Source: Curtobacterium sp. ZW137 | GTDB taxonomy: Bacteria; Actinomycetota; Actinomycetes; Actinomycetales; Microbacteriaceae | Assembly: GCF_003762905.1 (NCBI RefSeq) | Contig: NZ_RJKS01000004.1 | Location: 496,001 to 560,000 of the forward strand | Reading direction: 5' to 3' | Length of the DNA stretch: 64,000 bases | Shown here: positions 9,762-14,879 of the stretch, piece after piece | Layout of the letters: each line of letters starts with the position of its first letter | Position numbering within the stretch: position 1 is the first letter of the stretch | Program-made: the position numbers and the translations under genes | Notes under the pieces: generated by a model | The model's input: the letters and a program-made list of their open reading frames with translations, nothing else | Told to the model about the DNA's origin: nothing | Databases searched by the model: none

Positions 9762-10712
9762 CTACGAGGCGGGCAGGCCGGCGCGGGCGGCGCGGTCGCT
9801 CCGTCGGACCACGGCGACGTCGTGGCCGAGACGACCACGGGTCACCACGATCAGCACGGCGGCAGCGACCGTGGACAGGATCGCGAGCCCGGTCATCATG
9901 GTGCCCGCGGTCATCCCCGGGTACATGTCCGCCCAGAACGTCGTGATCGTGTTGTTCACGCCGACGTGCAGCAGCAGCGCCACCGGCAGGCTCTGGCCGG
10001 TCTTGTTGAACACCCAGGTCATGACGACGTTGAAGGTGATCGTGAAGGCCGCGAAGACGAGCGGCTCGCTCCAGTGCGCATCCGGCCAGCCGCCCCAGTC
10101 ACTGAGGTACAGCGGCATGTGCCACAGCGCCCAGACCGGACCGAGGACCGCGGCGGAACCGAGCGCGCCGAACCGGTCCTGCAGGCGAGGCAGCGCGAAG
10201 TCGCGCCAGCCGGGCTCCTCGGACAGTCCGGTCGTGAACAGCTGCACGACCAGCCCGGGCACGACGGCCGCGAAGGCCAGGGCCGATGGCGCACGAACGT
10301 CCCCGTCGGCGAACGGCAGCCCGGAGAGGACGATCAGCGCGGGCACCACGACGAGTGCCAGGGCGTACCAGTACCAGGCGACGCGCCAGCGCCAGAGCCG
10401 GCCGACCCAGCGGCGGAGCCCCGGACGGCCGTCGGCGATCGCCGTCACCAGGAACGCGCTGCCGAGCGGGCCGAGGAGTGCTCCGGGCAGGATCCCGGAG
10501 AACTGGGCGGTGCCGAGCAGCTCCGGGAAGTGGATGTCCCACACCCCGAGCCCGTGCGGGGACAGGATGTAGGGGATCCAGGCGAGCCAGCTCAGCCCCA
10601 GCGCGAGGGTGAAGAACGACGTGAGCGGGCGGCGGGCGACGAGGCCGCGTGCGCCTCCCGCCGGTCGGGGTGCGGTGCCGACAGTGGGCCGGACTTCGGT
10701 GGTGTTCGTCAT
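9762..10712 (-). CDS. CPBP family intramembrane glutamic endopeptidase
   Basis: A 316-residue polytopic membrane protein of the CAAX-protease/bacteriocin-processing (Abi) family. The three family motifs are present: GLSEEPGWRD with Glu165, Glu166 and Arg170; ALWHMP with His198; and LLLHVGVNN with His249. About eight helices can be counted. The ATG at 10712 was chosen because upstream codons lack membrane or family features. It runs just before the two-component system on the same strand (9-bp gap), so it may be co-transcribed. CPBP proteins are often linked to bacteriocin production or immunity, and a small peptide locus starts 173 bp away on the other strand. Confidence 0.88.
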   Translation of the reverse strand: MTNTTEVRPTVGTAPRPAGGARGLVARRPLTSFFTLALGLSWLAWIPYILSPHGLGVWDIHFPELLGTAQFSGILPGALLGPLGSAFLVTAIADGRPGLRRWVGRLWRWRVAWYWYALALVVVPALIVLSGLPFADGDVRAPSALAFAAVVPGLVVQLFTTGLSEEPGWRDFALPRLQDRFGALGSAAVLGPVWALWHMPLYLSDWGGWPDAHWSEPLVFAAFTITFNVVMTWVFNKTGQSLPVALLLHVGVNNTITTFWADMYPGMTAGTMMTGLAILSTVAAAVLIVVTRGRLGHDVAVVRRSDRAARAGLPAS

Positions 10713-10885
10713 GCCGTCGACGCTAGGGAGCGCCGAACGGCGGGACGACCGACGGAAGGACGCACCTGCCGGGGTTGCATCGAAGGATGCAGGACGACTG
10801 TTCCAGGACTGCGTGTTGCACATTTCACACTTCAGCGGCAGGATCGGACCATTACGGCGACGGACGCCGAATCGGGGAGGCAACG

Positions 10886-11123
10886 ATGAAGTCACCGACC
10901 AGGAACGAGAAGTGCACGACCGCAGTGGTGGCCGTGCTGACCGCAGGAATGTGCGCCTCACTGCTCGGCCCGACTCCGGCCACGGCGGCGTCACCCAGCG
11001 AGGCCGATCTTTTGGGGCGCATCGTTCAGCTGGGAGAAGATCCGGGCCCTGGGTGGCGCGGCAGCAGCGCTCGGCGCTGAGCTCATCGGCGTCACCGCCG
11101 TCAGACAGAAGTGCTTCTCATGA
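10886..11123 (+). CDS. Small secreted peptide gene with an apparent +1 frameshift
   Basis: The ATG at 10886 follows a good ribosome site (GGGGAGG, 10875-10881). It encodes a signal-peptide-like N-terminus: a short charged start, then AVVAVLTAGMCASLLG, and an Ala-rich cleavage region ending PATAAS. In this frame the peptide ends after 64 codons at 11080 with a Pro/Gly/Arg-rich tail that looks like out-of-frame sequence. In the +1 frame, the sequence from about 11007 reads IFWGASFSWEKIRALGG, then AAAALGAELIGVTAVRQKC, and stops at 11121-11123, overlapping the next gene's ATG by 4 bp (ATGA). That coupling suggests the +1 frame is the true 3' end. The switch point would be near GATCTTTTGGGG (11006-11017). 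It could be a pseudogene, a sequencing indel in T4G4, or programmed frameshifting. The Gly-rich amphipathic product resembles a class II bacteriocin, but I cannot name a family. Confidence 0.5.
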
Positions 11124-11377
11124 ACCGCTGGAAGTCTGCGATCGTCCTCCTCGGTGGCGCGGCTGCCACGACGGCCGCCTGTCTCTTCGCCGAGCCCGCC
11201 CTTGCCGGAATGGTCTTCATGGCAACCGTCTTCTGCGCTGCCTTCACGAAACCGATCATCGGCAACACGCAGGTGCCGGTCAACGCGGGAATCAGCGTTG
11301 ACGAGGTTCGGCGCTATCGCTTGCAGCATTCCGGGTCCACCATCAGCGAAGCTGCGGCTGCCGTCGCGCGCCGATGA
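11120..11377 (+). CDS. Small membrane or secreted protein coupled to the upstream peptide gene
   Basis: An 85-residue product from the ATG at 11120 (MNRWKSAIVLLGG), which overlaps the stop of the preceding +1-frame peptide. There are two hydrophobic stretches: residues 6-30 (IVLLGGAAATTAACLFAEPALA, which could equally be a cleaved signal peptide) and about 31-44 (MVFMATVFCAAFTK). A polar, charged tail ends with SVDEVRRYRLQHSGSTISEAA. I recognise no family. Being translationally coupled to a bacteriocin-like peptide, it could be the partner peptide or an immunity protein; this is inference. Confidence 0.5.
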   Translation: MNRWKSAIVLLGGAAATTAACLFAEPALAGMVFMATVFCAAFTKPIIGNTQVPVNAGISVDEVRRYRLQHSGSTISEAAAAVARR

Positions 11378-13301: not shown

Positions 13302-14879
13302 GTGCGCACCGAACCACGTCACTGGTTCCTCGCCCGCGACGAACGCGGCAACCTCGCCACGGACGTCCATGCCGGCGGGGCCGACGCGCTGCCCTGGTCC
13401 GAGGGCAACCTCGTCCGGCCACTGGTCCACGGGGCCCCGTACTTCGAACGCATCCACGCGGAGCTCGCGGCGCTCGCGCCCGGTGACCGTGTCTGGTTCA
13501 CCGACTGGCGGGGCGACGCCGACGAACGGCTGCTGCCCGACGGCCCCACGATCGGCGACCTGCTCGCCGACCGCGCGCGAGCGGGCGTGGAGGTCCGCGG
13601 CCTGATCTGGCGCTCCCACGGCGAACGCGTGTCCGCGTCGCTCAGCGCCCGCGCGAACGAGCTGCTCGGCCGGAAGATCAACGACGCCGGCGGCGAGGTG
13701 CTGCTCGACCAGCGCGTCCGCGTGTTCGGGTCGCACCACCAGAAGTTCTTCGTCATCCAGCACCGCGACGACCCCTCGCGCGACGTGGCGTTCGTCGGCG
13801 GGATCGACCTGTGCCACAGCCGTCGCGACGACGCAGCGCACCAGGGCGATCCGCAACCCGTGTCGATCGACGCCCGGTACGGCAAGCGGCCGGCATGGCA
13901 CGACGCGTCGATGGAGCTGCGTGGGCCGGTGGTCGCCGACGTCCTGGCGGTCTTCGCCGAACGCTGGGACGACCCGACCCCGCTCGACCGGAGCCTGCCG
14001 TACCGGATGCTCCTGCAGCGCCTCACCCGGATGCCGCGTCGCCCGGAACCCCTGCCGGAGCGGACTCCCCCGCCGCCGCCCGCCGGGGACCACGCCGTGC
14101 AGCTGCTCCGGACCTACGGGGTGAAGCGACCGCCGTTCCCGTTCGCGCCGGATGGCGAGCGGAGCATCGCGCGAGCGTACGGCAAGGCGTTCAAGGCCGC
14201 GGAGTCGCTGATCTACATCGAGGACCAGTACCTCTGGTCGAAGGAGATCGCGACCGGCATCGCCGAGGCCCTCGAACAGAACCGCGACCTCCGCGTGATC
14301 GTGCTCGTCCCGCGGTACCCGAACTCCGACGGGGTGCTCGGCGGCCCACCGGCGCGGTTCGGCCAGATCGAGGCGATGCGCACGCTCCGCCGGACGGCAG
14401 CGGACCGTGTCGGCGTCTTCGACCTGGAGCACGAGTCCGGGCGGCCGATCTACATCCACGCGAAGGTGTGCGTCGTCGACGACCAGTGGTCCACCATCGG
14501 GTCGGACAACTTCAACCGCCGGTCGTGGACGTCCGACAGTGAACTGACGTGCGCAGTCGTCGACACCTCGCCCGGTGACGGGTCGATGGCTCGGGACCTC
14601 CGGCGCCAGCTGTGGGCCGAGCACCTGGCGACCACGCCCGACGACGAACGCTTCGACGGGTCGGGCGTGGAGCTCCTCGCGCTGTGGCGGTCGACGGCGC
14701 GCGCACTCGACGACTGGCAGGAGGACGGGCAGCCAGGACCCCGACCGCCGGGACGCATCCGCCACCACGAGCCCGAGCCCGTGTCCGCCTTCCAGCGGCT
14801 GTGGGCGCGCCCCGCGGCGGCGTTGGTCGCGGACCCGGACGGGCGCCCGCGCGGCCTCCGCGGGACGAGCCGGTTCTGA
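13302..14879 (+). CDS. Phospholipase D-like protein (cardiolipin synthase related)
   Basis: A 525-residue protein with two PLD catalytic modules. The first has HHQKFFVIQ with His146 and Lys148, followed by VAFVGGIDLCHSRRDD; the canonical Asp of HxKxxxxD is Gln here. The second has IHAKVCVVDDQW with His386, Lys388 and Asp393, then STIGSDNFNRRSW, a full HKD motif. Such pairs form one active site that acts on phosphodiesters by a His-linked intermediate. There is no signal peptide or clear TM, unlike typical cardiolipin synthase. The GTG start at 13302 gives WFL-ARDERGN near the N-terminus as in related actinobacterial proteins. The GNAT gene follows 2 bp after the stop. Confidence 0.82.
   Translation: MRTEPRHWFLARDERGNLATDVHAGGADALPWSEGNLVRPLVHGAPYFERIHAELAALAPGDRVWFTDWRGDADERLLPDGPTIGDLLADRARAGVEVRGLIWRSHGERVSASLSARANELLGRKINDAGGEVLLDQRVRVFGSHHQKFFVIQHRDDPSRDVAFVGGIDLCHSRRDDAAHQGDPQPVSIDARYGKRPAWHDASMELRGPVVADVLAVFAERWDDPTPLDRSLPYRMLLQRLTRMPRRPEPLPERTPPPPPAGDHAVQLLRTYGVKRPPFPFAPDGERSIARAYGKAFKAAESLIYIEDQYLWSKEIATGIAEALEQNRDLRVIVLVPRYPNSDGVLGGPPARFGQIEAMRTLRRTAADRVGVFDLEHESGRPIYIHAKVCVVDDQWSTIGSDNFNRRSWTSDSELTCAVVDTSPGDGSMARDLRRQLWAEHLATTPDDERFDGSGVELLALWRSTARALDDWQEDGQPGPRPPGRIRHHEPEPVSAFQRLWARPAAALVADPDGRPRGLRGTSRF

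What the first reader, a model, noticed from the sequence alone, without database searches (positions are those of the whole stretch)
10886..11377. Secreted-peptide locus whose first gene needs a +1 frameshift
A good ribosome site and signal peptide lead into frame 1, but the sensible mature peptide (tryptophan-containing head, then a Gly/Ala-rich amphipathic helix) and the ATGA coupling to the next gene are in the +1 frame. The crossing lies at GATCTTTTGGGG. CTT followed by T is also the slip codon of bacterial prfB. So this is either a broken gene, a homopolymer sequencing error, or programmed frameshifting in an unusual bacteriocin-like pair. A CPBP protease, a family often tied to bacteriocins, is encoded 173 bp away.
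Basis: partly seen in the sequence, partly recalled or inferred. Interest (0 to 1): 0.6.

Follow-up and report, generated by a model that had tools for sequence, protein, structure and literature searches.

The report
Decayed bacteriocin gene beside its immunity gene
The odd two-frame gene looks like the remains of a secreted antibacterial peptide gene that has lost its middle, while the neighbouring gene that probably protects the cell from that peptide is still there; programmed frameshifting is not supported.

Summary
In detail: ATG 10886 opens frame 0 (signal peptide, stop 11078-11080), while the tail 11004-11123 reads in the +1 frame and overlaps ATG 11120. The reading changes. In 6 of 66 genus genomes (Curtobacterium, named through L028) the upstream gene is one open frame of 173-176 codons ending in a relative of the window's +1 tail. 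The window copy is 284-293 nt shorter; half of the conserved core, with its first cysteine, is missing. In 9 of 9 relatives that keep the tail behind a recognisable start, start and tail share one frame. The family is homologous to closticin 574, a secreted bacteriocin. The downstream gene, probably immunity, adjoins the intact gene in 6 of 6 genus genomes and the three strongest matches in other genera, though not the weaker ones. So this is a broken bacteriocin gene with a retained neighbour. Three relatives have other, in-frame deletions, and one outside the genus a nonsense codon, neighbour kept. The window's CPBP gene has no match near the locus in 12 of 12 relatives.

The parts
10816..10844 (+). 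promoter-like element TTGCAC-17 bp-CAGGAT; the TTGCACATTTCAC part is shared with several relatives
   Evidence: only exact match in the own genome; one further place with 3 mismatches. TTGCACATTTCAC with 0 mismatches in G026 and G054 and 1 in G021, G056 and G006; 2-6 mismatches in the other 27 loci. That it is a promoter is inferred.
10874..10880 (+). Shine-Dalgarno GGGGAGG of the upstream gene
   Evidence: sequence; anti-SD duplex -10.1 kcal/mol
10886..11080 (+). frame-0 ORF: remnant start and signal peptide of the bacteriocin precursor gene, then out-of-frame sequence; 64 residues
   Evidence: N-terminus resembles MKSFTSITPTK..LCASML..TPAQAAS of intact relatives; signal peptide judged by eye
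10983..10995 (+). probable deletion junction zone: CGGCGGCGTCACC, resembling the (L)GGVT codons that precede the tail, but in the +2 frame
   Evidence: local alignment of 10969-11006 with the right arm of 6 intact relatives: 0, 0, 2, 20, 21 and 36 of 500 shuffles reach the score; raw score higher than for the left arm in 4 of 6. Exact breakpoint not resolved.
11004..11123 (+). +1-frame tail: last 39 codons and stop of the bacteriocin precursor (C-terminal half of the core)
   Evidence: 79% identity, E 1.7e-15 to the G026 protein; DNA 75-83% identical to 8 relatives
11120..11377 (+). intact 85-residue gene for a small, probably membrane-bound protein, probable immunity protein; start overlaps the tail's stop (ATGA)
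   Evidence: relatives in 31 of 65 other genus genomes; next to 6 of 6 intact genus copies and to the three strongest matches in other genera; hydrophobic first half
9762..10712 (-). CPBP-family protease gene; neighbour only, not part of the locus
   Evidence: PF02517; no match near the locus in 12 of 12 relatives

Best explanation
The locus is a bacteriocin-immunity pair in which the bacteriocin gene is dead. The ancestral upstream gene coded for a precursor of about 175 residues: Sec signal peptide, a pro-region with an (I/V)P(D/E)xVL motif, and a C-terminal core of about 80 residues with two cysteines, related to closticin 574. In this genome an internal deletion removed the pro-region and the first half of the core, and what follows lies in a different frame, probably with a second small lesion at the junction. 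What is translated is a signal peptide followed by a short meaningless tail ending at 11077. The downstream gene, probably the immunity protein, is intact. Shown: the loss relative to intact relatives, the frame disruption, homology to closticin 574, the recurrent neighbour. Inferred: antibacterial activity, the immunity role, loss of function.
For: Single-frame genes of 173-176 codons in 6 of 66 genus genomes, ending in the same tail and followed by the same overlapping downstream gene. Start-to-stop distance 519-528 nt in these, multiples of 3, against 235 nt in the window. No second copy found in the own genome. A profile of the six cores scores 63.8 bits on recalled closticin 574, 31.2 on its published fragment Pom-1, 52.8 and 39.0 on two Priestia plasmid proteins; bests of 500 shuffles each 6.9, 9.6, 6.9, 7.1. 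Other genera of the family: G735 and G532 with an open gene, G537 with one TAG inside, all three with a relative of the downstream gene beside it. Damage with the neighbour kept also in G054, G062 and G034 (in-frame internal deletions). On the immunity-protein tree loci with an intact bacteriocin gene are scattered among loci without one (7 of 29 inner branches well supported).
Against: No reads and no second strain of the same species could be examined, so a misassembly cannot be excluded outright. The +1 tail has no stop before its end and looks constrained, so the lesion must be recent or the tail keeps some use. Three of four internal deletions are in frame, which could hint at selection on what remains (chance of at least 3 of 4 about 0.11, my arithmetic). 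The pair is not universal: G465, G504, G624 and G720 have weaker bacteriocin-profile matches but no match to the downstream-gene profile. The immunity role was not tested.
Confidence: 0.9

Rival explanations
1. Programmed +1 frameshifting at CTT-T joins the signal peptide to the +1 tail, makes a secreted helical peptide and couples it to the next gene.
For: Signal peptide in frame 0, protein-like tail and ATGA overlap in +1; weak Shine-Dalgarno before the downstream ATG (-2.3 kcal/mol), so ribosomes arriving in the tail frame would help its translation.
Against: Six relatives use one frame; 0 of 9 relatives with start and tail share the layout. The joined product would lack the first cysteine and half of the core. 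No stop codon follows the proposed slip codon, and prfB here is not frameshifted. A third frame probably carries remnant codons too (GGVT in +2), so one slip would not restore the protein.
Confidence: 0.04
2. Sequencing or assembly error: the gene is whole in the living strain.
For: The tail has no stop before its end and looks constrained.
Against: A homopolymer error changes a base or two; here 284-293 nt are missing relative to the six intact genes. Other internal deletions exist in three other genomes, so deletion is not unusual at this locus.
Confidence: 0.04
3. The remnant works as a leader: translation of a shortened upstream ORF starts translation of the immunity gene, so the toxin part can be lost while the reading is kept. 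This can hold together with the best explanation.
For: At the immunity start 5 of 6 intact loci and 2 of 3 in-frame-deleted loci have an anti-SD energy weaker than the median of random 20-mers of the window (-2.9), while 11 of the 21 loci without recognised upstream bacteriocin sequence have -7.7 or stronger. G034 is reduced to 32 codons yet stays in frame into the overlap.
Against: The window itself breaks the frame and its frame-0 stop ends 39 nt before the immunity ATG. G061 has a strong site in spite of the overlap (-8.1), G062 a middling one (-5.3). 10 of the 21 other loci have no strong site, and I chose their starts partly by site strength, which favours the pattern. Three of four in frame is not significant.
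Confidence: 0.25

Closest known systems
closticin 574 (Clostridium tyrobutyricum ADRIAT 932) and closticin-like bacteriocins
   Same: C-terminal core of about 80 residues at the end of a Sec-secreted precursor; both cysteines align; 47% identity over 78 columns with the 82-residue sequence as I recall it, 52% over 33 with the published fragment Pom-1.
   Different: Precursor 173-176 residues in Curtobacterium instead of 309 (309, about 27 and 82 residues from passages of PMC10888436); the window copy has lost half of the core; activity untested.
Priestia plasmid-borne hypothetical proteins WP_223546880.1 and WP_318618974.1
   Same: N-terminal hydrophobic stretch, a pro-region with IPDE(L/V), then the core (the second aligned only over columns 56-142). 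The first is followed by a small gene with a hydrophobic N-terminus.
   Different: Bacillota; in the second no small gene directly follows in the listed annotation; annotated only as hypothetical.
prfB-type programmed +1 frameshift
   Same: CTT followed by T.
   Different: No in-frame stop at the slip site, not conserved, own prfB in a single frame.

Membership tests
closticin 574-like secreted bacteriocin | Sec signal peptide at the N-terminus of the precursor | tested here: met
   By eye only, in the window's frame-0 start and 6 intact relatives; no predictor was run.
closticin 574-like secreted bacteriocin | homologous C-terminal core of about 80 residues, in the family | tested here: met
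   63.8 bits against a best of 6.9 in 500 shuffles for the recalled sequence; 31.2 against 9.6 for the published fragment.
closticin 574-like secreted bacteriocin | complete core with both cysteines in one reading frame with the start, in the window copy | tested here: not met
   Only the last 39 codons are recognised by the search, in another frame than the start.
closticin 574-like secreted bacteriocin | antibacterial activity of the mature peptide | not testable with these tools
   No bench data. For a Bacillus closticin-like peptide PMC10888436 reports no activity against two indicators (passages).
bacteriocin immunity gene (downstream gene) | small membrane protein encoded next to the bacteriocin gene | tested here: met
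   Beside 6 of 6 intact genus copies and G735, G532 and G537; no profile match in G465, G504, G624 and G720, which have weaker bacteriocin-profile matches. Hydropathy maximum 1.76 over 19 residues. No Pfam or NCBIfam family over its cut-off.
bacteriocin immunity gene (downstream gene) | protects against the cognate peptide | not testable with these tools
   needs an assay
programmed +1 ribosomal frameshift (prfB type) | same two-frame layout conserved in relatives | tested here: not met
   0 of 9 relatives with start and tail; G024 and G056, which may keep only the last codons, were left out because no start was recognised.
programmed +1 ribosomal frameshift (prfB type) | slip codon followed by a slow stop codon | tested here: not met
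   CTT is followed by TTG. The definition is recalled.
programmed +1 ribosomal frameshift (prfB type) | upstream SD-like stimulator at fixed spacing | not tested
   looked at by eye only

The most novel reading that the evidence does not exclude
In this family the bacteriocin ORF is being whittled down into a leader that only starts translation of the immunity gene: toxin sequence is lost while reading into the overlap is kept (G034, 32 codons). The window is the case where the frame broke, so immunity expression should be lower unless ribosomes re-initiate over 39 nt or slip.
Probability: 0.2. Interest if true: 0.45.

Novelty: new member of a known kind. Interest (0 to 1): 0.27.

Why it matters
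It turns a puzzling frameshift into a plain story: Curtobacterium carries a closticin 574-like bacteriocin with a probable immunity gene, and seems to lose the weapon repeatedly while keeping the shield. No Pfam or NCBIfam model matched the G026 precursor, so intact copies in relatives (G021, G026, G030, G050, G001, G061) are candidates for testing, and the partial deletions offer a natural series for asking how an immunity gene stays expressed after its toxin gene is lost.

Tried and rejected
Programmed frameshift, homopolymer error and the CPBP association were considered and rejected as explained in the report. My first model was a single deletion joined at GATCTT by microhomology; the segment 10983-10995 fits the right arm, so I leave the breakpoint open. 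Pfam and NCBIfam gave nothing over their cut-offs for the G026 precursor, the window's two ORFs or the G061 downstream protein; the weak lines Lipase_3 (0.068) and DUF7269 (0.035) were taken as chance. No solved structure matched and no phage record matched. No fold prediction was made. I did not test whether the window's immunity gene is under relaxed selection; I only note that it has Ser where the other 32 aligned rows have Pro.

The genome-contig scan with the downstream gene found 1 relative, far fewer than the whole-genome search; it starts from short peptide patterns. A1 also matched G020 over columns 6-42 only (E 3.2e-4); I took this as a chance signal-peptide match.

Full report
Observation. 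The window lies in a 3.9-Mb genome of 9 contigs.

Relatives decide the question. The downstream gene has relatives in 32 of 66 genus genomes, the own genome included. I read 33 loci: the window, 31 other genomes, and a second locus in G030. In six genomes (G021, G026, G030, G050, G001, G061) the gene before it is one open frame of 173-176 codons whose end is related to the window's +1 tail. From start to stop these genes span 519-528 nt, multiples of three; the window spans 235 nt. So 284-293 nt are gone, corresponding to the pro-region and the first half of the core with its first cysteine. Differences of the window's tail from the six intact relatives lie mostly at third codon positions of the +1 frame (13-19 at position 3, 4-6 at position 1, 3-4 at position 2). 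The tail was therefore coding in that frame for most of its history, and the break is comparatively recent (inference).

The junction. I aligned the 38 nt before ATCTTTTGGGG with the right arm (the stretch before the tail) and the left arm (signal peptide and pro-region) of six intact relatives. The raw score was higher for the right arm in 4 of 6 (not in G021 and G001). Shuffles reaching the right-arm score were 20, 21, 2, 0, 36 and 0 of 500 for G021, G026, G030, G050, G001 and G061; for the left arm 43, 488, 223, 94, 71 and 181. The matching codons, GGVT, lie in the +2 frame of the window (one search shows GGVT). If this holds there are two lesions and three frames, and a single +1 slip would not restore the protein. 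The support is moderate and the breakpoint stays open.

Why not programmed frameshifting. In 9 of 9 relatives that keep the tail behind a recognisable start, start and tail are in one frame (G024 and G056, which may keep only the last codons, were left out). The joined product would be half a core. No stop codon stands at the slip site. The genome's own prfB is a single open frame over profile positions 2-352 of 353.

What the gene was. The core is homologous to closticin 574. As an independent check, the fragment Pom-1, printed in PMC7690686 as a piece of closticin 574 (passages seen, abstract included), aligns at 52% over 33 residues. A profile of the six cores gives 63.8 bits for closticin 574, 31.2 for Pom-1, 52.8 and 39.0 for two Priestia plasmid proteins, against bests of 6.9, 9.6, 6.9 and 7.1 among 500 shuffles each. 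PMC10888436 (passages) describes closticin 574 as a 309-residue precursor with a signal peptide of probably 27 residues and an 82-residue product, so the layout agrees. The plasmid search matched 5 records, 3 Priestia and 2 Stenotrophomonas, none covering 80% of the query; two Priestia proteins were read. In a sample of 396 genomes of the phylum the core profile matched 4, the own included. No Pfam or NCBIfam model matched the G026 precursor.

The partner gene. In the family sample, the precursor profile A1 matched 9 of 299 genomes. The strongest outside the genus are G735, G532 and G537 (one TAG inside), and these three have a relative of the downstream gene beside the bacteriocin gene. G465 (E 7.4e-15) has an open gene of a different kind and no match to the downstream profile; the weaker matches in G504, G624 and G720 (E 1.4e-5 to 6.9e-4) have none either. 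With 6 of 6 intact genus copies this makes a recurrent pair in the closest branch of the family, not a universal one. The protein is hydrophobic over its first half. Immunity is the natural reading, not shown.

Loss without the partner. Besides the window, G054, G062 and G034 carry internal deletions that keep the frame (start to stop 333, 216 and 96 nt), and G537 has a nonsense codon. G024 and G056 may keep only the last few codons. In the remaining 21 of the 33 loci I recognised no upstream bacteriocin sequence. On the immunity tree loci with an intact bacteriocin gene are scattered, which fits repeated loss, although only 7 of 29 inner branches are well supported and transfer or gain would also fit. 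The surroundings differ: of six window genes sought by tblastn (E 1e-5) around 12 relatives' loci, only the downstream gene was found, except for the phospholipase-like gene 13302-14879 in G045 (G030's stretch ends with its contig just upstream). So the CPBP gene is a chance neighbour.

Expression of the partner. At its start the anti-SD energy is -2.0 to -2.6 kcal/mol in 5 of 6 intact loci and -8.1 in G061; -5.3, -2.0 and -2.0 in G062, G054 and G034; -2.3 in the window; -7.5 and -8.9 in G024 and G056. Random 20-mers of the window have a median of -2.9. Of the 21 other loci, 11 have -7.7 or stronger at the start I used and 10 do not; I chose those starts partly by site strength, so this comparison leans towards the pattern. 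Four of the 10 (G014, G064, G013, G060) overlap the end of another upstream frame. This suggests, without proving, that the immunity gene is read by coupling to the upstream ORF. In the window the frame-0 stop ends 39 nt before it.

In print. Searches: 'closticin 574' (38 papers, 20 listed), 'closticin + actinobacteria + bacteriocin' (5), 'Curtobacterium + bacteriocin' (127, 10 listed), 'Kemperman + closticin 574 + amino acid sequence + signal peptide' (7), 'closticin + polymorphic toxin' (0), 'orphan immunity + bacteriocin + cheater' (3). In the listings I saw no report of this Curtobacterium family. Passages only were seen of PMC11322243, PMC10888436 and PMC7690686; the other papers only as listings. 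Loss of a bacteriocin with retained immunity is a known kind of event (recalled).

Noticed in passing
L074 1456-3003 (-), genome G247: A closticin-like domain (core profile E 1.7e-5) forms the C-terminal end of an Rhs protein (Rhs core TIGR03696 at 341-416), followed by an ORF of 136 codons on the same strand: the bacteriocin core may serve as a polymorphic-toxin tip.
   Followed up: partly
L072 904-1782 (+), genome G174; same kind of match in G152 (L073): Closticin-like core with an LPDSV pro-region motif behind a weak DCC1-like thiol-disulfide oxidoreductase match (E 0.0087, under the cut-off). Only L072 was read.
   Followed up: partly
L095, genome G537: In another genus of the family a closticin-like gene has one TAG in the pro-region and an open relative of the downstream gene beside it.
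   Followed up: partly
window 10816-10828: TTGCACATTTCAC element shared with several loci, including G056 and G006, which lack a whole bacteriocin gene.
   Followed up: partly
L021, genome G034: Upstream gene reduced to 32 codons, start and last codons in one frame.
   Followed up: no
window 11120-11377: The window's downstream protein has Ser where the other 32 aligned rows of the genus have Pro in the (H/N)P motif, which may mark relaxed constraint; the G537 relative lacks the Pro too.
   Followed up: no
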